Assembly (NCBI GenBank): GCA_016618085.1
Contig: JABLTG010000089.1
Span: forward strand, 19,085-83,084
Length of the DNA: 64,000 nucleotides
Reading direction: 5' to 3'
Source: Neovahlkampfia damariscottae
Taxonomy: Eukaryota > Heterolobosea > Selenaionea > Neovahlkampfiida > Neovahlkampfiidae
Numbering within the stretch: position 1 is the stretch's first letter; every line of letters starts with the position of its first letter. The notes beneath the pieces were generated by a model. It made no database searches, was not told where the DNA came from, and worked only from the letters and a program-made list of their open reading frames with translations. The translations under genes and the position numbers were made by a program. Below are positions 11,811 to 53,569 of the stretch, piece by piece.

Positions 11811-14800
11811 ATGGGTCTTCATCTAACAAAAACGTTGGTTGAAAATTTTGTTGAAAATGGAAAAATAGATGAGAAGAATATAGAAAAAATATTTGAAAAT
11901 CATTCAAAAGAAAAAAAAATTCTGAAAGAAGAACACCCAAGTAAAGTTAAAAAAACAATTAAAACAAATTCAAAGATTTGATTAAAGACTTTACTCATGA
12001 CTTCATTATTATCATTGAAGAAGAACTAAAAAAGAAAGATACTGTTATTTCAAAATTAACTTTTGAGCAACAAAAAAAAATTTGGAAATCTCCGCATTTT
12101 GCACAAGAAAAATCTGAAGAAATGGAAGATGAAGAAATGGATTCGAATTCTTTCAAGGAGTGGTTCACGGACTTTTTTACGGAGAATTTAACAGCACTAT
12201 TTGTTAAAAGAGCAAAAGTTGATATTCATTTCAACACAATTTATGGATTGAACAATCACGATAAAGCGTTTTTGAAATCTCTATTACAAGTACATGGAGG
12301 TCATGATAAGATCACTTTCTTAAAACAACGTAAAAAAAAATTGTTCAATTAAATTTTTCAAGTTGAAAATCCATTGGAGCTAAAAGATGAAACAAACAAA
12401 ATAGATCAAAAAATGACATTTGAAATTGAACTATCTAAAAATCCACAAACAAATGAGTACGAACCTTATTTTTTGATGATTGCACTTGATCCAAACGCCA
12501 AGAAAGCGTTGATCAAAAAAGGAAGTGCCAAATCTGCTCATATTGACATATCCAAATATTTAAAGGAGGAAAAGAAGGTAGAATCAGATAATTATGATGA
12601 AAAATTAACCGGTGCACAAAAACAAACAAATTTGGGAATTACTTTCAATTTCACTTTAGAGTTTGAAAATTTACAAAGTATTAAATTATCAATTCAAAAA
12701 GAAAAAAAGGATAGAAGAAAATCAATGAATCCATTATCGAAAATGTTATCTCAAAATCATATCAAACCTGATTTTGGTGGATCTCCTAGAAAAACTGATA
12801 ATGAAGAATTGAACAAATTAAAAGATCAACTGAACAACTTAGAAGATGAAAAATCTATTCTTCAACAAAAGGTGACAGAATCTCAGCTAAAATTTGATAT
12901 TCAATTACATGATTTGAATAGCACAATAACAAAGCTTCAACAAGCTCAAGAATCATTGAGATTGGAAAACGAAACACTCAACAACACATTGAAAGAAAAA
13001 GAAGAGAAAATTCATGAAATTGAACAAACAAAAGAGGAATTTGAATCATTCTTGAAAGAAAAAGAAGAGAAAATCAAAGATTTTGAAGAAATGAAAAATG
13101 ACTCAAAAAATCAAGATGCAATGAATGAATTGCTTTCAAAAATTTTGAATTTGGAAATTGAAAAGAAAAATCTTGATGAATTGGTGTCTAATTTGAAAAA
13201 AGAAAAGGAAAATGTTATGAATGATTACGAATCCCAATTGAATGCATCTGAGAAACAATTGGAATCAGAAAAGGAAAAAATTGACTCATTAATAAAAGAA
13301 ATTGAATTATCCAAATCAAAAATTGAAGAAAAACAAGAGGAAATAAACAAAATGAACATAGAATTGAAGGAAGTACAAGAAAAACATGTTAATGAAATTA
13401 CTAAAATGAAAGAAATTTTTGGAAGAATCAAAGAAAATTTGACACAAAAAATTGAAGAAAAGGAAAAACTACTCGAAGAAAAAGATACTTCATCTAACAA
13501 TGAATTGGATATATCAGTGATCAAACAAGAACTTGAAGAAAAAATTGTTAAATTAACTTCAGAAAAAGATGAAATTGAAATTAATCTCAAAAATGTTCAA
13601 CAAGAAGAAGAGAATTCAAAACACCTAAAAGAGGAATTGAATGAAAAATACTTAAAGTTGAAAGATAATCTTTCAAACTCTGAAATGAATTTCCAAAAAG
13701 TTCAAGAAGAAAATGAAAAATTAAAACAAACCAATGATGAAATTATAAAAAATCTTCGTGAGACAACTTCAGAATTGACATTGAAGAAGATGGAAGAGAA
13801 TGAAAATCTGAAAAATATTACTATTTTAAATCAAGAAGTTGAACGTTATTCAAGAGATTACAGTCAATTAGAAGAATCATTGAAAGAAGAACATGAAAAA
13901 TCAATCATTGCTGAAAGGGACTTTCAAAAAAAAATGAATGAAATAGAAACAGAAAATTCAGAAAAAATTTCAAAAATGCATCAATCAGTTGAAGAAATGC
14001 AAAATGAAAATATCAAATTTCAAAAATTACAAAAGGAATTCGATGAAAAACAATTAGAATTGACAAAAGAAATTGAATCATTAAAAAAATCAGCAAATGA
14101 AAAAGATGCATTATTGGAAGATCAAAACGATTCCAATTCTCAATTGATTGAGTTGATGAATGAAAAGAGTGAATTACAATCAGAATTTGAACACTTTAAA
14201 GCTTCTTCAAAAATTGAAATTGAAAATTTGAGTTCAAATCTTCAAAATCAACAAATTGAAAAACAAAAAACTGAAGAAGAATTGTCATTGATTATGAAAG
14301 ACTGTAATGATTTAAGGATTGAAAAAGATGATTTCAAATTGAAATTTGAAGCATCAGAAAAAGAAATTGAAATATTGAAAGAAAAAAAACAAAAACTGCA
14401 GTTGAATTTAAATCAAATCTCTCTCACAACATCAGAATCTGAAAATAAAATAAATGAAGAATTATCCAATCAAATTCATGAAAAAGAACAAGAAATTGAA
14501 AATGTTCAAAAACTTCTTCAAAATGAACAAAATATCAACCAAAATCTCAATCAACAGATTGTTCAAATTGAAGAAAAGCTAAAAGAAGTCACAATTAAAT
14601 TTGAAGAATCTGCAAAACAATCAATGATCACTCCGTTATTGAATGAAGAAGAAAAAGTTGAAATTAATGAAGAAGAAATAATCTCCAGAATTCAAAAAGG
14701 AAACATCAAAATCATGACATTCAATATTAAAATAAAAAAAATTGATGAACAAACTGATAATGAAAAAGTTGAAAAAATTTTGAAATTGTGCAAAGAATCA

Positions 14801-15445
14801 TCTTGTGATTTGATTTTTCTTCAAGACACAAATGAAGATTTTGAAAAAATTTTTAGAGTTGAATTGAAACATCACTATCCATTTCAATATTATCAACAAT
14901 CAGGAGAATGGGAAGATGGAGGAATGGGAACACTTTCAAAAATCAAAGTTGAAACAATAACCATCAAAATAGGTTCAAAAGCATCTCCATTTACTGCTCA
15001 ACTTACTTTTATTGATAAATTTCAATTTTTGAATGTTCATTTGAGTCAATTAAAAGATTACAAAAAAATTGATGAAAGTTCTTTTGAAAAAGTGATTCAA
15101 AATATCAAGTCAATTCAAAAGAAAGGTTATAATCAGCATTCTGAAGAAATTGAGTTCTTGATCCAAAATTGTGAAGATGAAGAAAACGTGATTATTTTAG
15201 GAGATTTCAATGATCAAGAAATTGTCAACTGGATGAAAAAAAGAAAATTCAAAGATTGTTTAGAAGTATCAAAGGAAAAATCAACATTTTATTTGGACTT
15301 ATTTCTCGGGTTATCTTTAGTTCAATCTTATGATCACATTTTTCATTCGTTAAATTTTGAATGTAAAAATTGTGAAGTTTTGAATGAATTCAAAAATATT
15401 TCAAAACATGTTCCATTAATGGCAACTTTGAATAAATTGAAATAA
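11811..15445 (+). CDS. Long coiled-coil protein with C-terminal EEP (endonuclease/exonuclease/phosphatase) domain
   Basis: Three exons (11811-11940, 11976-12329, 12363-15445) give 1,188 aa in one frame. Residues 1-300 contain a small globular part that I do not recognise. Residues about 300-930 are a continuous Glu/Lys/Leu heptad coiled coil. From about residue 940 an EEP-fold domain begins with KIMTFNIK; the catalytic landmarks LIFLQDTNE, GDFND (about residue 1107), YDHIF and KHVPL are visible, though the consensus SDHxP is weakened to KHVP. EEP domains cut phosphodiester or phosphomonoester bonds in nucleic acids, inositol lipids or sphingomyelin. The coiled coil suggests dimerisation or tethering to cytoskeleton or membranes. 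The stop codon is inside AATAAA (15441-15446). Confidence 0.75.
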
Positions 15446-18807: not shown

Positions 18808-20525
18808 ATGAAGTTTGGAAATCAGCTCTTGTTACAAAGAAACCCTCTTTGGAAGAATTTCTATATAAAATATGACTTGGCCAAGAAATCAATCAAGAAA
18901 TTTGATAAGAATACAACAGAAAAAGAAAGAGAAGAATTTTGTAAATTCTTGACTGAAGAAATTGAAATTGGTAAGAAAAAAAACATAAAAATTGAAAATT
19001 AAAAAGTAAATTCATGGTATAACAAACTAGAATTATTAGCTTTTTCAACCTTAAAAGAGTTAAAAGTACACTTTGCCAGTTCAGACGAACTTTATGATAT
19101 AAATCAACAAATTTTGATTGCTGAATTTTCAGATATGTTATTTTCACTTCGAAATTTTGTTACTTTAAATGATTTAGCTTTTCAAAAAATTATAAAAAAA
19201 TACAGAAAACATTATGAGGATGAACACATTGAAAAAGTTGAAAATTTATTAGCAGAGCAATATTTTCTTACTTCAAAGGCTTTAGATACTATCATGTCAC
19301 CTATCCATGTTTGTTTAATTTGGCAAGAAATTTAACTTTTTTTTAGGGTTTGCTTTTACATGGTGATTCTGAAACAAAAATTGAATCAAAAATTACACCA
19401 CAACCAGAAAATCCTGTAATGATTTCAGAATTTAATATAAAATCACTTGAAAGAAACAAAATTCATCATTTCTTTTATAACATTGCAACAGATTCAATTG
19501 GAACACCTATTTATGTACCAATTATTGTAGGTAAGAAGAAACAAAAAAAACTAAAAAAAAACAGCACGTGGTATCAAAAAAGGTCCATTTTTTTGTATCA
19601 ATTCAGCACTACATGGTAATGAAGTAAATGGTATTCAATTAATTCATGAATTGATGAAAACTATTGACACAAATATATTAATTGGAACTGTTATTTGTTT
19701 ACCTGTTTCAAATCCTTTAGGTTATTTCAATAAAACTGGTGCTTATGTGGATGGAATTGATTTGAATAAAATCTTTCCTGGTAAACCAAATGGAAACCCA
19801 AGTCAGATATTTGCTCATAGATTACTCAATGATATCATTCTACAAGTTGAATATTTGATCGATATTCAAACTGCTTCATGTAAAATTAAAAAAAAAAAAT
19901 TTAATTTTTTGTAGTTGGTTCTGTAAATTCATTATGTGTTTCTGCAAATATGAAAGATCCTATTGTTCGTAGATTAGGTAAGGATTGAATGTTTTATTTT
20001 AATTTTTTCAAGCTTTTCTTCAAAATCCTCAAATTATTGTTCACAACTCGGTTTCTAATACATCACTTGAAGGAGCTGCTATGAAACTTGGTATTAAATC
20101 AATTGCTTTACAAATTGGAAATCCTTTAGTCTTTCAAAAAAAACATGTTAAACATGCATTGGAGGGTGTGAGAAAAATTATGAGTTTTCTCAAAATGATA
20201 CCAGAACCACAAAACACAATCATAATGAAATTACCTATTATTTGTTCTTCATCAAAATGGTAAATCAACTTTGAAATTTAACTTTTTTTTTTTTTTCAGG
20301 TTGAACACAACAGAAGGAGGTATTATTCATATTTTCCCAGAAATCAACACTTGGGTGAAAAAAGGAGAACTCATTGCTAAAGTCAAAAATTTGTTTGGCA
20401 CAGTGGTTGAAGATTTTTATTCACCTGATGATTGTGTAGTTATTGGAAAGAATTCAAATCCTGTCACTCAAAGTGGAACGCCTTTCATTTATCTTGGATT
20501 TTGTCACAAAAGTTATGAAGATTAA
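18808..20525 (+). CDS. SPX domain fused to aspartoacylase/succinylglutamate desuccinylase-like domain (probable pseudoenzyme)
   Basis: Seven exons (18808-18970, 19007-19308, 19347-19530, 19565-19879, 19915-19977, 20013-20259, 20300-20525) give 499 aa. Residues 1-155 form an SPX domain: MKFGNQLL start, a mid-helix LRNFVTLNDLAFQKIIKKYRK with the basic residues that bind inositol pyrophosphates. Residues about 190-499 match the AstE/AspA zinc carboxypeptidase fold: the first two zinc ligands are present in ALHGNE (His233, Glu236) and a biotinyl-like C-terminal barrel is intact. The third ligand motif, normally D-L-H-T, reads DIQTAS (Gln318), and the catalytic Glu motif, normally V-E-I-G, reads LQIGNP (Gln376). 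The protein therefore probably senses phosphate state through SPX and binds, rather than hydrolyses, an acyl-amino-acid-like ligand. Confidence 0.82.
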
Positions 20526-23600: not shown

Positions 23601-25872
23601 TCTTTTATCAACCAATTTAGTCGATTACTTTGCAAATCAACCAAAATTATTTCAAACTTTGACAAAATACTATACATCAGTAAGAAACATTGAAATATTC
23701 TAATTCTTTTTTAAGTTAAAAAATCATTCAAAAATATCATTAGAATCAATCAAAATTATCAATAATCTTTCAAAATTTGAATCACTTCATGAAAAGATGA
23801 TTGAAAATGGTGTTTTATTACATTTACTTGATATTGGTGTTCTTTATCAAAATGAAGAAAAAAATGGAATTGATGAAATTCTATTCATTTCAGTTGTTAG
23901 TTTGATCAATTTATCCAAAAATTTCGAAGTTCATACATTACTTATAAATTGTTTAACTGACAATTTATTAAATTTAATGATAGAATCACCTTCTGAATTT
24001 GTATTTCACTCAAGAAAAACAATCGAAAATCCAAAAATCATTTGGAATCATTTAACACAAAAAGAATTGAAAGAATTCGTCAAAAGTGAAATACCAAAAG
24101 TTACACAAGATGGAGAATGGAAGATTCCAACATTTAGATATTCATGTTTAGAAGATGAATTAATGATTGATGGTGTTTATATTAGCGGTATCAAAATGGG
24201 TTCACAATTTGAACTTGAAAATCCAGGAAAATTTTTAGAACATATTTTATTGTCTATTTCTGAAGATAATCTTGGATTATCTAAACCTGATAATGATGAA
24301 AAAATAGTTCAAGTGATTTTGAAAAAATTATGCATGAAATTAACAGCACTCAAATCTTTATTGAAAGAACAAAAAGATAATCTTCATTTATCAGAATCTA
24401 ATTATCTAAATTTAACACCTTTATTCAATATTTTACTTGAATTACCAAAATTAGAAAATAATAGAGGTAGTTTCAAATTATTATTGGAATCATTTTTGTT
24501 ATTATCAAATGATGGATATACATGGAAACATACATCATCTCTATTTTGTTTTCATAAATTATTACACATTTCAAATGAACACAAAGAAATAATTCTAAAA
24601 ATTTTAAGTGAAATCTGTTTGAATGAAAATAAAGCAGTTGATAATGCAATTACTTCAGGTGTTATAATTACAGCTCTTTATATCATTTCAAGTGAAGAAA
24701 ATGAAGAAATTAGATTAGAAGCTTCTAAATTATTGGGTGTAATTGTTGGAAATTTAAAATTTGGTGAATTTGGATTACATATTTTACAAAAAGTAATGAT
24801 GCAAAGATTTGGTGAATATTTATTAAAATCATCTGAAATACCAGAATCTCTTTTAGATTTTTATGATGATGACCACAATGCACCTGACATTGTTTGGAAT
24901 GATGGTGTAAGAGGAGATTTACAAAATTATTTAAAATCACAAATTGATTTAATGAATGCCTATTTTGAAAAATTCAACAAAGAATACACTTATCTTTATG
25001 AACCATATGAAAGGAAAAGTTTAAAAAAAGAAATTTTAGTTGGTGATATCTTCATCAAGAGTTTTAATGATAATCCATATTTCAAAGTGAATAATCCAGA
25101 TAGATTATTATCTTTATTATTTGCAAGATTATCAGATGAACATTCTGAGTATTTAAAATCAGTTGATTATTCAACAACACCATTGGACCTTTGTTCATTA
25201 TGGGATGCTATTAAAAATTTAATAAAAAACTCACAATCACTTCAATTAGAGTGTAACAAATATATCAGAATTGTATTCGCATTTTTACAAGATTATGAAG
25301 AAGAAGATACCAATGTTATCAATAGTGTTTTGAATGTACTCGCTATTTTAGTTCAAAATGAAACAAGTGTTAATCATGTTGTTCAAGGAAAATATTTACC
25401 TATTTTATTATTTTTAACTAACATTGATGATTTGTGTTTATCAATTTTGAATGTTTTTGTTGAAATGACAAAATTTCCAGAATTTTTATTGCAATTCAAA
25501 TTGGCAGGTGGAATTGTTTATGTTTTAAAGTTAATTTTGAGACAAGAAAATAAAGTTCGTGAAAAATCAGCTGAGTTATTGAGTAAAATAACATTGAATT
25601 CAAAATATGGATCTCAAATGAAAGAGTATATTTGTCAATTTTTGACACCAAAATTTTCATCAAAATTTGAATCTAGACCTGATAAATTTATTGAATTTTT
25701 TGATGGTTTTCATGAAACAACAGGAAAATATAAAAGAAAATGGAGTAAAGAAATTAGAGAAGATCTTTTGTTATTTTTAGAAGAAAGAATTAAAGAATTT
25801 GAAGCTGAAAAATGGAATGGATCAGAAAGGTTTTCAATTGATTCAGTTTCTCAAATATTTAAAAAAGAATAA
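20609..25872 (+). CDS. RME-8/DNAJC13-like protein lacking a J domain
   Basis: Fourteen exons (20609-20700, 20736-20785, 20821-21025, 21058-21229, 21270-21341, 21369-21615, 21648-21750, 21782-22184, 22221-22523, 22559-22876, 22910-23166, 23206-23324, 23354-23679, 23716-25872) join in frame to 1,607 aa. Four IWN-type repeats, the hallmark of RME-8, are visible: VIWDKKTRNEL, LIWSKDQRTKM, IIWNHLTQKEL, IVWNDGVRGDL, plus a degenerate KWSKEIREDL near the end, each followed by a similar 90-residue block. The rest is armadillo-like helical repeats. RME-8 is an endosomal scaffold that recruits Hsc70 through its J domain; no HPD motif was found here, and the N-terminal PH-like region of animal RME-8 is also absent. 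The stop lies inside AATAAA. Confidence 0.7.
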
Positions 25873-36120: not shown

Positions 36121-39100
36121 TTATTCAAGTTCAGATCTTGTATTACTTGGAGGTGGTCTTTCATCATCAGATTCTTCTTCATCTTGTTGTTGTTGTTTTT
36201 GTAATTGCTCAAGTCTTTCTTGTTGACGAGCTTGAATATCTGTTTTTTCAGTTTGTAAAAGACTCTTATTTCCAGTTCTTTGAGTACTCTTTGAACCAAC
36301 ATAAGAAACACTTCCATTATATTCTGATTTGATTAAGTAACCATTTGGCATCATTTGACCTTTAATACTTTCTTCAGGTACCAAATGAGTTCTTGATGAC
36401 ATTTTATCCAAATTTTGAGAAATGACACCATCCAATTTTGTTTTTTTTGCAATTTTGACAGCAGTTCTTTTTCCTGCTCTTGTGATTAAATATAATTTTC
36501 TTTTTGCTCTTCTAGAAGAAAATACATCTTCAAGAATTTCATTCATTGATTTTAAGTTATCTTCAGGTTCAGATCCTTGTTCAAAGTTGATTGTAAATTG
36601 AAAATCATGTTCTGTTTCCCAAGGAACAATATTATCATTGACTTCAATATGTCTTCCATGTAAATCATCTAACACATTTGCAAGTTTTTCTTCATTTGCA
36701 ATTTTTTCTTCTTCAACTCTTTTCTTTCTTTTTATTCTTTTTTTAGCTTTTTTTCTTCTGATATAAACATCAAATAAAAACATGAAAACTACAACAAGAT
36801 TTGAACCAATAATCAAAGCAACGGTGATAAAAGGCATAATGAAACTTAAAACATTTTTCAAACCAGGATCAATAACAACATTTGTATCTCCATTGGCATT
36901 AACAACAAATAATAATAAACCAGCGAATAAAGTCATTAAAGTTGACATCAAAATGAAATAATCCATTAAATTGTGGAATTTTTTACGATAAGGAATGAAA
37001 TTAACTTGTAACATCATACCAGTAAAAATAATGGCAATACCAACAGTAATCAAAAACATAGGTTTGAAAAATGTTGTCAATACTGAGAATGAAGCTTTTC
37101 TAATAGAATCAAATAAATCCCAAAAGAAAAATCTCTTTTTATATTTGGATAATGTAAATCTATTGATTAAAATGAATGTTTCAGATTTTTCCAATTTCTT
37201 ATAACGAAGAATCAAAATAGTGAAATATAAAATAGATCCAAGTCCAAATAATATAATTGATATCACAGAAAGAGGTAAAAATATGAACCAAATATTTTGG
37301 AAGCAAATAATATCAGGACTTTCTTTAAATGTATAAATACCATTTGGTTGATAATCACATCCAAAAATTTGAAATGATGTTGTCATAATTCTTAAAAAGA
37401 AAAATGAAATGAATGATAAATAAGCACCAACAATTTTGTTAAACAATCTTTTTAGTTCAACAAAAGTAGATTTTTGTCTAACACTCCAAACCATAAAATT
37501 TCTAACCCAAATAAATGTATTACCAATTGATCTAAAAATAGATTTGATTATTTCAATAATTTTGTTTGTCTTTTTTGGTTCATCATCGTCACTATCTTCA
37601 TCATCAGATTCCAAAGGTCTTCTGTATTTTAATTTTAAAATTTTTGCAATTCTAAATCCTATTGATGCTGCAAAGAGTGATCTTAAAACAGCAATGAAAT
37701 AAATGATGATAAAGGCAAATAAAAACACAAATGGCATTGAAATTTGAGTGAAATAAATGTAGAAGTAATTATAAGTTAATCCAAAAATTCTGAAAATACA
37801 TTCAGGAGCAAGAAAATCAAAATTAAAGTTGGCTGCAGAAGCAGCTGATAATGTACCACCAACAGCTTCTGGCCAGTCTAAATCTAATGTTGCAAAAGTG
37901 GAAATAATTTGCCAATAACCAAAAGTGATAGAAATGGAAGTCATTTGTGAAATTTTTGTTGAAGTGATAACAACAAAGAATGCAGCAATAATCATAATTG
38001 CAAACATGATTGCAATTGCAGCGATTAACAGTAAAGCTGTAATTCCAGAATCATTACATTTTTTACAAACTAATTTTGATTTGTAATATCCATCAGCACA
38101 TCTTCCACATCTTAAATCAGTGTAACCAACTGTACAATTATCTGCATTATCTGGTAAACATCTTTCTATAGGATAACATTGATAAAATATCGTAACATCA
38201 ACTTTACTGAACCACCAACCTTTTTGTGATTTTGGAAGTGTAACATTTTCAGGATTACAAATTGCACCTTGAGGACAATCAATACATACTTTAGTGATTG
38301 GATGAACCATTGAATTATTGACACAAACACATTGATCTACAGATGTTAAACCAGTTGTGCTTCCAGGTGATTTCATTTTATCTGGACAACTTGTACAATT
38401 TATTGATCCAATTTTGTCAGTATATGTGTCGACTGGACAATCAGTACAAACTTCAATTCCATTATTTGATTTAAATTGACCTAAAGGACATGGCTCACAA
38501 GCTTCTTGATAAGAAGATGTTCCATAACCACGTATGCAAGGTATAAATGTAAAATTGGAAGTTGTTGGATACCAATCAATTCTGTTATAAGACAAATCAA
38601 ATGCAATAGATACATCAGCGTTTGCGATAACACCACAACGAACAGCTGTTGAATTTATAATTTTGCATGGTTGGTCAACTTTAACAGATCCGATTCTCAT
38701 ATAAATCTCTGAAAATCTTGTGTCAAAAGAACCTGTGATAAGAACAGAATAATTTCCTGCAGCGACACCAGAAGAAGGTGTAATTGTTTGTGGCATTGGG
38801 TTTTGAATCATGTAGTAAACTACAGTATCTGAAGTATCATTAAATGAATTCTTCAAACTGAGATAAACTTCATTAACAGTATCATATTTTGCATCATAAA
38901 TAAATGTACAAATGATTGAATCACCTTCAATGATTTTGTCAATGGAATAATACAATGTTGAGTTAGAGTCTTTAAATTCGCAAGTTCTGACGTCTTTTAA
39001 ATTTGCTCCTTGCATTGTAAGATTTAAAGTTTTTCTTTCTCCAATTGCAGGTTCAATTCCAACTAAAAATAAATTCGCAAACTTGTCAGCAATTGTGATT

Positions 39101-42100
39101 GATCGTGTTTTGAAATCAATTCCATCATTCAACGAAATACCTAATGTTGCAATAATTGGAAATGAAAATGAAAGTGTTGATGGTGAATAAAATTCAAATT
39201 TTGGAACAATGAATTCTATCATATTTGCATCTGAACTGTCAATTGTTTGTGTGTATGAAAATAGTTCATTTTCCAATTTTATAATTGCAGATTCATTTAA
39301 TTTTGTTCCTTTCAATTCTAAAGTAGTGTTTTGAAATGAGAAAGTAGTATCAAATGAATTAGTTCCTTTGGCAGCAACTGTATCAAATGTAAATGCATCA
39401 ATCAATTGAATTTGACTTGATATTGTTGCATAATCAAAACCTTCATTGAATGAGATTTGAATTGAATTTCCAAAACTCTTTTTCAAATTCAGAAGAACTG
39501 TTGTTTGAATTGGGGAAAATAAGAATCCAATTTTATCATCCATAACGTTGACTGATGATGCTTCAACTGTTTTTCCATCAAAAATACCACGAACTTTAAC
39601 TGAATTGGTGAATGGTGATAATCCAGTTCCTGTTAAATAAATCATGTTTTCCATGTTCCTTGATATTTTTTTTGTTGGAATTTGAACTGTAGGTTGAGTC
39701 AAAACTGAAATTTCTGAAAGTATTAACGGGATGAAATATCTGGTTTGTGAGTCATCAATGAATTCAATTGAATACTTATTATCCAATGGATTTGATTCAC
39801 CAATACAAGAGGTCATATTTGAATTACAAGTGAATTTAATTACTTCTGAAGTTGATTTTAATTGCATTGCCATTTTTTTTCCAGCTAAATTTATTTTTGG
39901 AAAATTAACAAAAGAAAATTTCAATGTTGTTCCGGATAAAAATACTTTTGGTGAAAAATCAACAACATCAAATCCTGTGTATTGAATTAATTGAGATCCG
40001 AAATAATCAGTTCCACCATCTAAAGATGTTTCAACACTCAATGTTCTTGGGTAATATACGCTATATTGTGCTAAATGAGGAGCTTCACATTTAATATTTC
40101 CATTTTCAATGGTAGCAGTTGTAACTTCATTGATGAATTGATCTTTAAATCTAACAAGACAAGAGTTTGTTGGTAAAACAATTCCAGTTGGGATCACAAT
40201 TGAATAAGAAATTTGTGTGACATTTGGATTTGCAACAGTTGTTGGTGATAATGTGTTTGATGATGCTGAAATGACTTTTTCACTGGAAAGGTCATTTGTA
40301 AATAAATATAATTTCTTGTCTAATGTTTCAAAATTTTCACCATCCATTGAAAGTTGTAAAGTTACTTGTTGAGCAATAATAGCAGAATTTTTTGAAATTG
40401 GGCAAGAAATAAGGTTAGTAGCTTCAACAGTACAATCTTGAGTTTCTAACAATTCAACATACTTGATTTTATAGCTTAATTTACTTGAGAAAGCAAATGA
40501 AGAACTTTGCAGTTTAATTGTCTTTCCTGTGGTAAAAATATCAACCAAAGATGATGGAAAAATATTTGAAATTGAAGGAACAGCAAAATATTCAAACCAA
40601 GGTGTCAAAGAAATTGCTTCAACATCGTCAATATGAATCGAAAAACGAATTGATTTTGGATAAACCTTTGATTCAACTTTTGGTGATCTACAATATCTTA
40701 AAGTTCCCACTGTTGTATTACAAGTAATTGTTTGTGAATTCAATTGATTAATAGCTTTTAATGAAATGTTATAATCACTTTTGAAAAGAGTTGGGAATCC
40801 TTTTTGTTCTATGAATGAAAATTCAGTATTTCCTGTGCTAAAACCATTGTAAGTGCTCATGTAAATCGGATCAATGAATTGAATTCCAGCTTGAGTTGAA
40901 ATTTGATAATTGGTTTCATTGATTTGAATTCCAACTGTCAATTGTAAAGTTTCTACTCTTGAGCTTTTCACTGTACATGTTACAGTTGAATTTGCACTTC
41001 CAGGATTTTCAACAGTTGCAATTGATAATATTTCATTATTTGATGAATTAATACAATTAAATTTAAATCTTTGTGAATTTAAAACACTTCCAAATGATAA
41101 TTGTAATTTCAACGGATTAATTCTATGAGCAACAAAAAGAGCAAAATATGGAACTGCTGATATTAATTGGTTATCATTATTGAAATATACAATTGAATTA
41201 AAATTCAAAATAGTTTCAACTCCAGGTGTATTGTTCTTTGTAATGATTAATGAAAGATTGTAATTTGAAGGTTGAACTAAAGGATTCAACACATTAGGTT
41301 TACATTGTAAATCTATTCCTTTCACGCAATTTACAATTGTACTTCTATCAGGAGATAATTCTTCTGTAAAGTTCAATTGATAATTAAATTCATTTTCATA
41401 ATTCAACATATCAATTTGGAAGTTTTCTGAAAATGAATTATCTGTGATTGTCAAATTTTTGAATTTCAATGGTTGTCTATAAAAAACAACTTTCACTAAA
41501 TTTGAAAAATAAGTTGAATCAACTGAAAATAATGTTGTATTCAATGCAAGTCCAACTTGAAGATAAGCAATGGATTCTGAAAATTTGGAAATTGAAACAG
41601 AACATTTGATCAAATTTCCTTCAATTCTTGCATTTGATCTTCTATAGCCATGATGTGTTGAATTGTATTTACAAATCAATCCTTTCTCATTTACAACAGT
41701 GTCTCCAGTTTTTAATGACAATGAGACATCAAATGTAAAATCTTCAATATTATTTGAGAATCCTTTTGCAAATGGTGAAATCGTTTCAATTTCAACTGGT
41801 TTTCTGTAAATGTATTGGATTGAGTTTGATGAAAAATCTACACCTGAAGCACATCCTGTTGGTTTTATTTTCAAGAATAAACTTTCATTTCTTGCATTAC
41901 CAGTTCCAAGAAGAGAACAAGAAAATCTTCCATTTGAATGAAGAGTTGCTGTAAATTCATCAGATCCCAAAGAACAATGGTAAGTGGCATTTCCTCCAAA
42001 AATATCCAAATTGTAATTTGTGTGAATATCGGCAGCAGTAGTTGTTCCAATCATGGTAGTAAATGGATTGACACTTTGAATTGATATTTTTTCAACAAAT

Positions 42101-45100
42101 AAAATTGGTGATGAATTTGGTGAGATTAAAATTTCACCATTTTCAGCATCATCATTTACATACCAAAGTGAAATTTGTTGTACTCCTGCAACAGATGATG
42201 AAACATTACATAAATATTGTTTATCTGTAACTCTAGTTGTTGGAACTAAAGTGTTTCCCAATTTACATTTCACAAATGGTGAAAGATTTGATGGGAATGA
42301 TTTTTCTCTATTTACTGTCACAGTTAATACTTCATTCAAATGAACGATTGTTTTACAGTCAGTAATTGAAAGAATACTATCAACATCAACAAATGTAACG
42401 TTCTTTGAGTCAGTGAATGTGAATTGTTCATTGAAAGCAAGTGATTGTGCATTTTTATAGTTGATTTTTGCTTGATAAATTCCTGCGATTAAATCACTTG
42501 GATCAATATCACTTTTAAAAGATGTTGTTCCATCCAATGCCGCAAATTCAATATATTTAGTTCTTTCTCCAGAAAGTTCGACAACTAAAACACCTTCATT
42601 CATTTTTATTGCACTACTTAAAGTGACGTTTAATGAAAACTTTGGAAAAGATGTTGAAATTGGAAATATAGTTGGAAACATTCTTGCAATTGTTCTTTTT
42701 TCATACAAAACAAATTTAGCACTTAATAAATCTTGATTTTCTGTGAAGTATAAATTATATGATGAAAAAGAAGAAAAAGTTGAATTAAATGTTGGAGTAA
42801 TACAAACTAATTTTCCTAAAATTGTTGAGCAATTAAAAATATGATCAATATTGAAAGGAGTTCCAATGGTAATCAATTTGTTTGTAGTTTTTGGTTGTAA
42901 AATTTCAACAGTTTCTCCTCCAGATATCAAACCATGATTTGGAGTGAAAAAGTTTGATTCAATGAATTTATAAGGAACTGAAGGTAAAATTTCAAGTGTA
43001 TGTCCGTAAGTAGTCATCTGAATTGACAACAGGTAAGTGATTACTGTAGCAGAATACATATCTGTAGTAAACTTGAAATTATTTCCATCAACTGAGAAAT
43101 TTGTTTGAGCTGTTTGAAGTGTCAAAGGATCTGATTCACCATATTTTGTTGTAAATGTAACATTGCCATAATCTTTTGCAAGAAAACCAGAAAACATATT
43201 CACATTATTTGTAACATTTGTCGTAGCAACAGATGGACTAAATCCGGTGAAAGTTGATTTTGTAACTAAAACAAATTCAATTTGATTGGTAGTGATCGAA
43301 AATCTTTCATTTCCTTCAACATATTCAAGAAAAACATTGACTCTCCCAGATGTTCCATACGTGAATTTTGCTTCCGAGTCCACACTTCCAGAAATAGACA
43401 ATGTATTTTTTTGTTCATTTGTATAACTATCTGAAGTATTTAAACTTAATTTAACATTTGAGATCAAAGATAAATCCATAATTGTAGTAGCTGAAAAGTT
43501 CATGAAATTAGTAGAAACAGATGTATAATGAAATCTTATTGCTGAAGTATCAATGTCCAAAAGACCAGGTTGAATGTAAAAGAGTGTTGCTGTATTGTTT
43601 GAAATCAACAAATAATCATTTGATATTTGAGGAACTCTGATATATCCAGTAATCGTGGTTTGATTAAATCCAGCATATGGGATTGAACAATTCATTTGGT
43701 TGTTGTTAATTCTAGTTGCAGAATATTTCAAATTTCCATTTTCTTGAATGTTACAATAATATTCAATGTTCGAAATTCTTGGATCAACTCTTAAAGTATT
43801 TTCAGCAAATGTCATTGTGATGTCAATATTTTTTCCAACAACAGTGGCATGTGGTGAAATGTCCATATCAATTGATTTATATACCAATAAAGGTTTTGAA
43901 ATATTCATTAAATCTAGAAAGTTGACAGTTAGAGGTACGGATTTTTGAAATAAAAAGTAACTGAGGTAGACATCCAATGCAGGCACATTAACAGTTGACT
44001 GACTACAAACAGTAGTCATAGTGCCTAGAACGCAATCATAACGATTTGTAGTTGACAGCTCTTTTAATGAATAATCAGTGTTTAAATCTTGATAGTGAGG
44101 AGAAATTACAAATTTTGATGAATCATTTCTCAAAATTTCGAAATTTCTCGGTTGTGATTTTTCAATATAAGATGGTGATATTTTTAGTTGATTAAAAGAA
44201 AGTGGCAACAAAGTTGAAACTGCTTCATCAGATAACCCTGGAATACTTGTATTCACATGAACAGATATTGTAAATTCTTCATCTATAAAATTGCTTTGAA
44301 TATCGCATGTAATTGAAAGCACTAGTAAGTTCTTCACATCTTTTTTTACTGGTATCTTAGTTGAACTTCTTGAATCCAAGCAATAGTAATCCAAATGTAT
44401 GTTAAATCTTGGCTTTGATATCATTGAAACTGTCATCATATTAACAAGTGGATCAAGTACAAAGGGAAATGGAGAAACTTTGTACATTGTAACTTTTCCA
44501 AGAATATAAAAATCTGCTGTAACAAAAGATATTTTTTTTGTGCCGTCAATAATCTCCAAGCGGATGTGCGCAGTTTCTGGTAGTCTAGCAGCAGGTCTTG
44601 TATCAACTGCACAATCTAGAATATCATCACAGTTTAAATCCAGACTTCCGAATTCAGATACACCAATCATAGCAATACTGTAGTTACTCAAACCAAAAAT
44701 TTTTGTCATATTCAACGAAAATGGAACTGTTTGATTAAATGGAATGACTGAAGACATATTTGTGCTCATTGGTTCTTTGATAACAACATGTGATAAATTC
44801 TTATTTGATAAATAAAATGAATTATCTCCTCCTAATGAAGTACTAGTATTGACCCATAATCCAATTAAACTATCATCTGAATTTAACTGTGTAATTGAAG
44901 GGAGTTTCATTGTACAAGTTGCAACAGTTGAACTCATTCTAGTTGCCTTCGAGTAAAGAACACCATCCGAATTAGTAACATGTCTGCAATAAACTTTTGA
45001 AAACTCCACAGGTAAATTTTGTGTTGTGATAGAAATTTCTTGTGAAGTAACACTTTGATTATTTGCAAATGGATAGAGTTGACCAGTTTCAACAGTTTCT

Positions 45101-49710: not shown

Positions 49711-52700
49711 ATGAACAAATTAATGCTAAGTATCGTTTTGTTCTCAGTTTTATTGTTTTCTACTCATGGAGGATTGGTAATTAGTGGTGATAATGATTTG
49801 GGATTCAATATGTTTCAAAACGACAAGTTGTTATACAGCTTCACACAAATTCATCCAGATTTAACTTCTGGATTAAACTTTACCACAGTTTCAATTCCAG
49901 CACAAGACCAAGAACATGGAACTGCCCTTACGTCAACTGGTGACTTATATTCATGGCACGGAACTTATCAAGTTTTTTCTTTAATAGAAAAACGTGCTTC
50001 TTCTGTTGTTGCAATTTCATCTTCAGTTAGTCATGTGTTATATGTCACAAGCGACAAAAAAGTTTATTGCTTCGGTTTTTTTTTTTTTTTTTTTAATTTT
50101 CAGGTGACAATTCAAAAAGAGCTTGTGGTCTAATAGCTAGTTGTACAAAAGCATCACCTTGTTTATATGGAAATATTGCATCACTAAATGCCACAAATAT
50201 TGAAGCTGCAGACAAATTTAGTTTTGTTTTATCTGATGCCGGAGAAATTTATGCGTCAGGTGATAATTCAGATCCACAAGAACATTTAGGTGTGAATTCA
50301 ACAGAATCAACAGTTGGATCACCTTTAAAAGTTTTTGGCTCTGTCACTGGTAAAACAATTGTAAAAGTGAAATCAAGTACTATTCACCACGCTGCTCTTG
50401 ACAGTGATAACGTCCTTCATGCTTGGGGTTCAAATTCTAACGGTGAAGTAGGAGATGGTACAACAGTTCTGAAAACTTCATCTGTTATATGCAACATTAC
50501 TGCTCTCAATGGTGAAACAATTGTGGACTTTGCTTTACCAACTAGAGCTACTATCATTATTACAAGTACTGGAAAAATATTTGCAGCGTAAGATTTTCTT
50601 TTTTTTAATTTCTTCTTTGTCAGTGGTGATTTTAGAAATGTTGTATTTGCTGGTCAATACGGAGTTAATCAATTAATACCAGTTTTTGTTGCTCATAACA
50701 ATTACATTCAAGGAAAAGTTGTAAAAGTTTCAACAGTACAAACATCCAAAAAAATTGTTTCATTTTTAACAAGTGCTGGAGATATTTATGTATGCGGAGA
50801 AACTGTGTTCAATGGAAGTGTTCAATTTGCTCAACATTTGCCATTTGATAAAAAATTTATTGGAATGACAGGAGATTTAATCGCCATTGGAGAAGATGGA
50901 AAATTATACGGAATTGGAGATAACCGAAAAAATTTCATCGTTCCTACCTTTGCAAATGAAAGAATGACAGGAACTAAGTTTGATGATATCTCTGTTCTTC
51001 CAAAAATGGTTGACAGCTCCGACTCAGACGAACAAAAGACATTCTTTGCAATATCAAAAAATAACGTACTATATGGTCAAGGAAACACAGCTGGAGGTAA
51101 TTTTAAAGATTTTAAAGTTTTTTTTTACTAGGAAAACTTGGTTTGAATCCAAATTCATTAGTTTTATCGCATAGAAACAGTTATCCTTTTTCACCAATAA
51201 ATTCAAATACAAATTTTAATAATACTGGAATTACAAAAGCAGCTCCTTCATCAAAACATCTGGCTTTATTAAAAGGAACAATATTATACACCACCGGAGA
51301 ATTTACTGGTAACAACAAAACTTCAAATGAAGTTGTTGAAGTAAACCTCGCTTCAATGGCTGGAAAAACTATTAAAAATATTTATCCTTCTTCAACTACT
51401 ACAGTTATTCTCACTATGGATAACAATGTTTATTACTTTGGTGACGATATTTTCGATGGTGGTTTAACAACAACACAAGGAATTAAAAAGATGAATACAT
51501 CAGTTCTAGGAAGTGAAACTATCAAAGACATTCAATGTGGAAATAGATTTTGCTTGTTTCACACAAATGAAGGAAATGTTTTTGGTTCAGGAGAAAATAC
51601 CAGAGGTCAATTAGGAAATAATGTCAAAATAGATTCTTTCAGTGAAGTTGTAAAAACAGATATGTCACTTGTCACTGCACCTATTGCAGAATTTTCTGTT
51701 GGTAATGCACACGTCATTTACAGAACAACAGACAGTCTTGTGTTTGGTGCTGGTAGCAATGCAGAGAGGGCTCTTGGGTTTAAATCTACTATAAGCGGAG
51801 ATAAAACCAAACCAACTCAATTGATCAATGTAACTGATAGTGATTATCTAATTACCCGAAATGTTACAGCTAGAAAGATTGCTGCTGGTGGACAAATTTC
51901 CATCATTCTCACAACCTCAGGCAGTTTCTTAGTATTTGGAAAATATGCATCATATTATCGCAATAGTGTATATGAAATTGCAAGTTTAACAAACACTCCT
52001 TCATTTATTTATCCACCTATTTATGAAAATGAAACAGTTGTTGATATTTCAGTTAGATATAGAACTATTTATTTCTTGACTGATTTTACATGTCAAGGAA
52101 TACTTTCATCTAATTCATCTGTTTGTAGTGGGTTTGGTCAATGTGCTTCATATGACAATTGTAAATGTAATGCAGGTTATATTGGTGTTACTTGTGAACT
52201 CTCTGTTTGTGCTGGAAAAAATTCATCAGATCCAAATGTTTGCTCTGCTCATGGAACTTGTATTGCTCCAAATAATTGCTCTTGTACTGATGGTTATACA
52301 GGTGACACGTGTCAATTTCCAATTTGTTATCAAAAAAATGCTTCAGATTCTTCTGTTTGTTCAGGTAAAGGTTCTTGCATTGCTCCAAATAATTGTTCAT
52401 GTTTAACTGGTTATGAAGGCAATCAATGTGAATTATTTAAATGTAATGGAAAGAATTTCTCAGATCCAAACGTTTGTTCAGGAAATGGAATGTGTTTAAC
52501 ACCAAATAATTGTACTTGTCAAAATGGTTATATTGGAAATGATTGTCAACTTGTGACATGTTCAGGAAAGAATACTTCAGATCCAACAATTTGTTCAGGT
52601 AAAGGTTCATGTGTAGCACCAAATAATTGTTCATGTTCAACTGGATATTCAGGAAATCAATGTGAATTGTTCCAATGTAATGGAAAGAATTTTTCAGACC

Positions 52701-53569
52701 CAAATGTTTGTTCAGGTAAAGGAACATGTTTAACACCAAATAATTGTACTTGTCAAAATGGTTATATTGGAAGTGATTGTCAATTAGTCACCTGCTTTGG
52801 AAAGAATTCATCTGACCCGACTATCTGTTCAAGAAAAGGATCTTGCGTTGTTCCAAACAATTGTTCATGTTCAGTTGGATATTCAGGAAATCAATGTGAA
52901 TTGTTCCAATGTAATGGAAAGAATTTTTCAGACCCAAATGTTTGTTCAGGTAAAGGAACATGTTTAACACCAAATAATTGTACTTGTCAAAATGGTTATA
53001 TTGGAAGTGATTGTCAATCCATCAGTTGTTTTGGAAAGAGTTTCTCAGATCCCACTGTATGTTCAGGAAAAGGAAATTGTTCATCAGTTAATAATTGTAC
53101 TTGTGAAAATGGATATTCTGGAAATCAATGTGAAATTCAACCATTTGTGTCACCAGTTGCTTCTCCAATGACTCCAATGCCTTCCAATGCACCAATGACA
53201 TCAAATGGATTTCCAATGAATTCACCAAATCCAATCACATCAAATGGAGCTCCAAGTACTTCACCAAATCCAATGACATCAAATGGAGCACCAATGAACT
53301 CACCAAATCCTTCAACATCAAGTGGAACTCCATCTACTTCACCAAATCCTTCAAAATCACCAACTGTTATTCGTAGTTGTTTTGGTAAATTATCAAATGA
53401 TTCAACTGTTTGCTCTGGAAGAGGTAAATGTAATTCACCAGATGTTTGTACTTGTGAAACTGGATTTAATGGAAATCAATGCCAAAATACAAATACAACA
53501 TCTGATTCATCAAGACTATTATACTCTTTTACTCTTTTGTTATCAATTTTAATATTTTATTTATTTTGA
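49711..53569 (+). CDS. RCC1-repeat and EGF-repeat surface protein, probably GPI-anchored (1,252 aa)
   Basis: Four exons (49711-50074, 50104-50587, 50624-51096, 51132-53569). The ATG at 49711 opens a signal peptide (MNKLMLSIVLFSVLLFSTHG). Residues about 20-790 contain RCC1-type propeller repeats (TALTSTGDLYSW, VLHAWGSNSNGEVGDG, VFGSGENTRGQLGNN, VFGAGSNAERALG). Eight or nine EGF-like modules follow, each of the form C-x-GKN-x-SDP-x-VCSGKGxC-x-PNNCxCxxGYxGxxC; six of them come from three copies of a 234-bp duplicated pair. A Pro/Ser/Thr/Asn-rich stalk (NPMTSNGAP repeats), one more EGF module and a hydrophobic end without a cytosolic tail (LLYSFTLLLSILIFYLF) suggest GPI attachment. Intron 1 is nearly all T. 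It is the head-to-head partner of the giant gene. Confidence 0.88.
52441..53142 (+). repeat. Three tandem copies of a 234-bp two-EGF module
   Basis: The sequence ATGTAATGGAAAGAATTT recurs at 52441, 52675 and 52909, exactly 234 bp apart, each unit encoding two EGF-like domains (78 aa). Copies 2 and 3 are identical for about 110 nt from that point, while the second halves have diverged more. This suggests a recent duplication or gene conversion inside the exon. Confidence 0.9.

What the first reader, a model, noticed from the sequence alone, without database searches (positions are those of the whole stretch)
18808..20525. SPX domain fused to an aspartoacylase-like domain missing two catalytic residues
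The first 155 residues are SPX-like; the rest is an AstE/AspA-type zinc hydrolase fold. The first two zinc ligands (His233, Glu236) are kept but the third position is Gln318 (DIQTAS instead of the usual DxHT) and the catalytic Glu is Gln376 (LQIG instead of xEIG). Both changes are direct codon reads (CAA). Combined, they suggest a phosphate-linked sensor built on a dead hydrolase.
Basis: partly seen in the sequence, partly recalled or inferred. Interest (0 to 1): 0.75.

Follow-up and report, generated by a model that had tools for sequence, protein, structure and literature searches.

The report
Phosphate-sensor fused to a dead hydrolase
A single-celled eukaryote carries a protein that joins a seemingly intact phosphate-signal-sensing domain to an enzyme domain that has lost its active site, while intact copies of the same protein lie elsewhere in its genome, which suggests that the dead copy regulates rather than catalyses.

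Summary
Observation confirmed. Window 18808-20525 (+) is a seven-exon eukaryotic gene for a 499-aa SPX + AstE/AspA protein. His233 and Glu236 are kept; the third zinc ligand is Gln318 and the catalytic Glu is Gln376 (both CAA). Eleven further near-invariant positions have changed, but all six SPX residues known to bind inositol pyrophosphates are kept. The fusion itself is common (70 of 258 collected proteins show the SPX part, many fungal) and usually intact: His/Glu/His/Glu in 253 of 258. The five exceptions lie in one branch, with this genome's paralogs. The tree favours two dead groups, each sister to a live paralog of the same genome (C274, C305); a single loss is not rejected. The double Gln is private to the window: the metagenomic sisters keep His and have Gly for Glu. 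Bacterial homologues lie beside an ATP-grasp-like ligase gene in 15 of 20 loci, and the protist has that gene too. Best reading: a catalytically dead SPX-hydrolase paralog acting as a regulatory partner, comparable to Vtc2/Vtc3 of the polyphosphate polymerase. Loss of the active site is well supported; the regulatory role is inference.

The parts
18808..20525 (+). SPX-AstE pseudohydrolase gene, 7 exons, 499 aa, ATG to stop
   Evidence: spliced frame; identical EukProt model P0001; place C295 in own genome
18808..18970 (+). exon 1, aa 1-54 (SPX N-terminal hairpin, MKFG start)
   Evidence: model helices 3-11 and 22-31
18971..19006 (+). intron 1, 36 nt GT-AG
19007..19308 (+). exon 2, aa 55-155 (rest of SPX domain)
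19309..19346 (+). intron 2, 38 nt
19347..19530 (+). exon 3, aa 156-216 (linker, start of AstE domain)
   Evidence: linker 162-171 pLDDT under 50
19531..19564 (+). intron 3, 34 nt
19565..19879 (+). exon 4, aa 217-321 (HGNE zinc motif, DLN, DIQTAS)
19880..19914 (+). intron 4, 35 nt
19915..19977 (+). exon 5, aa 322-342
19978..20012 (+). intron 5, 35 nt
20013..20259 (+). exon 6, aa 343-424 (LQIG)
20260..20299 (+). intron 6, 40 nt
20300..20525 (+). exon 7, aa 425-499 (C-terminal beta domain) and stop
18871..18885 (+). codons Tyr22 to Lys26 (inositol-phosphate PBC residues Tyr22 and Lys26 kept)
   Evidence: alignment to Vtc3 chain; residue roles PMC9911596 section 8
19186..19209 (+). codons Lys115 to Lys122 (KSC Lys115, 118, 122 and PBC Lys119 kept)
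19612..19623 (+). HGNE: His233 and Glu236, first two zinc ligands kept
   Evidence: kept in all 257 proteins with letters there, window included (P0121 is partial)
19867..19869 (+). Gln318 (CAA) in place of the third zinc ligand His
   Evidence: His in 257 of 257 others
20111..20113 (+). Gln376 (CAA) in place of the catalytic Glu
   Evidence: Glu in 253 of 257 others

Best explanation
The gene encodes a pseudoenzyme: an SPX domain with the residues for binding inositol pyrophosphates, fused to an AstE/AspA-fold domain that can probably no longer hydrolyse amides because one zinc ligand, the catalytic Glu and all five near-invariant arginines are gone. It arose by duplication of a live SPX-AstE hydrolase (sister of the C274 copy) and most likely works as a phosphate-status-responsive regulatory partner of the live SPX-AstE paralogs, through SPX-SPX or hydrolase-domain contacts, as Vtc2/Vtc3 are thought to do for Vtc4. 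Shown here by sequence: fusion, loss of active-site residues, kept SPX pocket residues, paralogs with intact residues in the same genome, a sister lineage that also lost the Glu. Inferred: no activity, ligand binding, partnership with the live paralogs, the substrate.
Against: No expression, binding, activity or interaction data. The second dead paralog C234 lacks the SPX N-terminal residues and dead P0165 has Ser for one KSC lysine, so 'dead = sensor' is no uniform rule. In VTC the SPX of the non-catalytic subunit Vtc3 was not the sensor (PMC9911596 section 8). The SPX part of the dead sisters P0002/P0121 is not in the predicted fragments (342 and 261 aa), so joint keeping of SPX in that clade is untested. 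One origin of all dead copies is not rejected (AU p 0.194). pTM 0.67 leaves the domain arrangement open.
Confidence: 0.5

Rival explanations
1. The dead domain has taken on a binding role of its own (for example holding the former substrate or another metabolite), independent of the live paralogs; the SPX gates that binding.
For: Fold, DLN motif, His233 and Glu236 are kept, so a pocket remains; H489Y is shared by window, P0002 and P0121, as a shared new role could give.
Against: All five near-invariant arginines, candidates for holding a carboxylate substrate, are lost in the window; live P0010 also departs at 489 (Leu), so that site is a weak sign. No ligand data.
Confidence: 0.2
2. The gene is a decaying copy without function.
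For: Many changes at conserved sites and an end branch of 0.66 against 0.37 for live P0003; but live P0004 has 0.73, so the branch length says little.
Against: Seven exons and six splice sites are intact over 499 codons; a dead clade persists elsewhere with open frames (P0002 and P0121, 90% identical to each other, P0002 57% to the window); changes are concentrated at active-site positions while all six SPX ligand residues are kept.
Confidence: 0.1
3. It is still an enzyme, with altered metal binding or other chemistry (Gln318 as a weak ligand, another base for Glu376).
For: Two zinc ligands are kept; that Gln can bind metal in rare cases is recalled, from no call.
Against: Glu178 of human ASPA, the equivalent by family alignment, is listed in its catalytic site (PMC5412892 passage) and its E178D change is said to affect activity (PMC10240701 passage); the arginines are lost too; the sister clade has Gly there.
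Confidence: 0.13
4. Assembly or gene-model error.
For: Each Gln codon is one base from a codon of the family residue; the EukProt model may come from the same assembly, so it is not independent.
Against: Thirteen changed near-invariant positions, clean splice sites, and metagenomic sisters that lost the same Glu.
Confidence: 0.02

Closest known systems
VTC polyphosphate polymerase, non-catalytic subunits Vtc2/Vtc3 beside catalytic Vtc4
   Same: SPX fused to an enzyme fold, with a catalytic paralog in the same cell; a homotypic SPX contact between Vtc2 or Vtc3 and Vtc4, released by inositol pyrophosphates, is proposed to control activity (PMC10167327, start of abstract and passages)
   Different: Different catalytic fold (AstE/AspA, not the VTC tunnel); no complex shown here; that the Vtc2/Vtc3 tunnel domains are inactive is recalled, the paper passages name Vtc4 as the catalytic subunit
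Fungal SPX-AstE fusion proteins (Neoconidiobolus, Basidiobolus, Coemansia, chytrids, Mortierellaceae, Pneumocystis)
   Same: Same two domains in the same order, about 33-45% identity to the window protein over the part aligned
   Different: Every collected protein with a fungal name keeps His/Glu/His/Glu; no description of function found in the searches made
DoeB / EutE, N-acetyl-L-2,4-diaminobutyric acid deacetylase (6twm, 6twl), and 3cdx
   Different: TIGR02994 score 44.6 against cut-off 402.7; two key residues lost; SPX added
Human aspartoacylase (ASPA)
   Same: Same superfamily and motif order: zinc ligands His21, Glu24, His116, and Glu178 in the catalytic site (PMC5412892 passage)
   Different: The counterparts of His116 and Glu178 are Gln

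Membership tests
SPX domain (PF03105) | Profile match over the curated cut-off | tested here: met
   31.1 bits against 27.8
SPX domain (PF03105) | Inositol-phosphate residues PBC Tyr22/Lys26/Lys130 and KSC Lys126/129/133 (Vtc3 numbering) | tested here: met
   Y22, K26, K119 and K115, K118, K122 by alignment
SPX domain (PF03105) | Binds inositol pyrophosphates | not testable with these tools
   needs a binding assay
AstE/AspA family (PF24827) | Profile match and fold | tested here: met
AstE/AspA family, active enzyme | Three zinc ligands His, Glu, His | tested here: not met
   third is Gln318
AstE/AspA family, active enzyme | Catalytic Glu | tested here: not met
   Gln376
DoeB (TIGR02994) | Score over the equivalog cut-off | tested here: not met
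   44.6 against 402.7 bits
SPX pseudoenzyme regulatory subunit (Vtc2/Vtc3-like) | SPX fused to a paralog, inactive by its residues, of an SPX enzyme with intact residues in the same genome | tested here: met
   C274 (P0003) and C305 (P0004) keep the quartet; activity itself not tested
SPX pseudoenzyme regulatory subunit (Vtc2/Vtc3-like) | Physical complex with the catalytic paralog | not testable with these tools
   needs co-purification
VTC proteins (PF09359) | VTC tunnel domain | tested here: not met
   only AstE_AspA_cat and SPX listed for the 499 aa up to E = 1; the one VTC match in the genome is on C238

The most novel reading that the evidence does not exclude
SPX-AstE proteins and the ATP-grasp-like ligase found beside their bacterial homologues form an undescribed inositol-pyrophosphate-controlled module that makes and breaks an amide-linked metabolite or modification, and in this lineage two live/dead hydrolase pairs evolved in parallel, the dead members setting the phosphate response of the live ones.
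Probability: 0.25. Interest if true: 0.82.

Novelty: new variant of a known kind. Interest (0 to 1): 0.58.

Why it matters
SPX domains are eukaryotic receptors for inositol pyrophosphates (PMC9911596 section 8); from recall they sit on phosphate transporters, the polyphosphate polymerase, a kinase inhibitor and ubiquitin ligases. An SPX-controlled amide hydrolase would be a further output of phosphate signalling, and no paper in the held library combines 'SPX domain' with 'aspartoacylase' or 'succinylglutamate desuccinylase'. A genome with live and dead copies offers a natural separation of sensing from catalysis, and the ATP-grasp-like gene gives a first lead to the substrate.

Full report
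Gene. The window segment is eukaryotic in structure: the frame is broken by six short GT-AG introns (34-40 nt), and splicing gives 500 codons including the stop. The same protein exists as a EukProt gene model, P0001 (100% identity and coverage). The genome has 20.4 Mb in 307 contigs and the window lies on C295. Pfam finds SPX (31.1 bits, cut-off 27.8) and AstE_AspA_cat (72.4 bits, cut-off 25) and lists nothing else up to E = 1.

Active site. In human aspartoacylase the zinc ligands are His21, Glu24 and His116, and the catalytic site includes Arg63, Asn70, Arg71, Tyr164, Arg168, Glu178 and Tyr288 (PMC5412892, passages). The window has His233, Glu236, Gln318 and Gln376. In 258 aligned proteins (257 listed by three searches, plus paralog C234 spliced) the quartet is His/Glu/His/Glu in 253; the exceptions are the window (HEQQ), P0002 (HEHG), P0121 (partial, last two HG), P0165 (HEHA) and C234 (HEHS). 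The searches had 161, 755 and 151 hits and listed 120 each, so the sample is of the nearest relatives. Of 53 positions at least 97% conserved among the 253 live proteins the window changes 13, P0002 9, P0121 9 of 44, P0165 13, C234 15; live proteins change at most 5 (P0003), median 0. The window loses all five near-invariant arginines (275, 324, 331, 362, 486). Its overall similarity to live relatives is not exceptional: 51.5% AstE identity to P0122, against 55.0% and 52.3% for the two live paralogs of its genome. So the change is concentrated on conserved, mostly active-site, positions.

SPX site. The binding residues were taken from PMC9911596 section 8, read in full: Vtc3 Tyr22, Lys26, Lys130 (PBC) and Lys126, Lys129, Lys133 (KSC). 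The alignment to a Vtc3 chain puts them on window Tyr22, Lys26, Lys119 and Lys115, Lys118, Lys122. All are kept. Of 70 proteins with the SPX helix aligned, window included, 53 have this full set; live P0004 has Phe for Tyr22 and dead P0165 has Ser for Lys118. That section also reports that in the assembled VTC complex the Vtc4 SPX and not the Vtc3 SPX acts as the sensor, a caution for the analogy. Another paper proposes that contacts between the SPX domains of Vtc2/Vtc3 and Vtc4 hold the complex inactive until inositol pyrophosphates release them (PMC10167327, start of abstract and passages).

Paralogs. The own-genome search finds four AstE places: C305, C274, C234 and the window (by the tool's own note counts can be lower bounds). 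C305 (P0004) and C274 (P0003) have the intact quartet. C234 keeps the zinc ligands and has Ser for the catalytic Glu; as spliced it starts at an ATG past the MKFG segment and lacks Tyr22 and Lys26. The genome also has an SPX-VTC gene on C238 and inositol polyphosphate kinase family matches on C98, C274 and C106; whether any of these makes pyrophosphates was not tested.

Tree. With 60 AstE domains chosen from the 258, the 24 standalone rows (bacterial where a name is given) and the other 36 rows part (100/98). The five dead rows lie in one branch of nine rows (100/98) that holds this genome's four paralogs and unnamed metagenomic sequences. Dead window + P0002 + P0121 are sister to live P0003 + P0010 (99/87), and dead P0165 + C234 are sister to live P0004 (99/93). 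The least number of changes is two. On 37 rows the same shape appears when the 53 conserved columns are left out (94/82 and 98/95) and, with weaker support (79/84 and 82/84), when the long row C234 is left out too. Holding all dead rows together is not rejected (p-AU 0.194). So two losses are favoured, not proven.

What is in print. No paper in the held PMC library contains 'SPX domain' together with 'aspartoacylase', 'succinylglutamate desuccinylase' or 'pseudoenzyme', nor 'ATP-grasp' with 'succinylglutamate desuccinylase'. Most subscription papers are not in that library.

Judgement. Dead hydrolase: about 0.87. SPX still binds inositol pyrophosphates: about 0.75. Functional gene: about 0.9. 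Regulatory partner of the live paralogs: about 0.5. The architecture is not confined to this organism but seems undescribed in the literature searched, and a live/dead pair under an SPX is a clear, testable variant of what VTC does.

Noticed in passing
G000 C234:22618-24239 (locus L027): Fourth AstE-type paralog with zinc ligands kept but Ser for the catalytic Glu; its SPX part begins past the usual MKFG segment.
   Followed up: partly
L037-L050 and L052, upstream of the hydrolase gene (in L045-L049 with a second ATP-grasp gene between); protist copy in L063 (C220): A ~475-aa ATP-grasp-like family without a Pfam match in the four tested, conserved beside bacterial AstE homologues and present in this eukaryote.
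   Followed up: partly
L052:4978-6945: Plesiocystis pacifica has two AstE-type genes in tandem (46% and 51% to P0079) downstream of the ATP-grasp-like gene; both keep HGNE, DLHT and the Glu.
   Followed up: partly
L026 (C274): The EukProt model P0003 ends in other residues than the genome frame, which goes on in the family pattern past its end; a gene-model matter, the quartet is unaffected.
   Followed up: no
window 12374-15445 (+): 1023-aa frame with an endonuclease/exonuclease/phosphatase domain near its C-terminal end (PF03372, 1.4e-6) behind what looks by eye like a long coiled coil.
   Followed up: no
window 23797-25872 (+): Frame with a partial RME-8 N-terminal match (PF19432, 3.6e-8), perhaps part of a larger multi-exon gene downstream of the finding.
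   Followed up: no
window 36121-45009 (-): Single open frame of 2962 codons with an ephrin-receptor-like match in two stretches (PF07699).
   Followed up: no
window 51143-53569 (+): 808-aa frame joining RCC1-like and EGF-like repeats.
   Followed up: no
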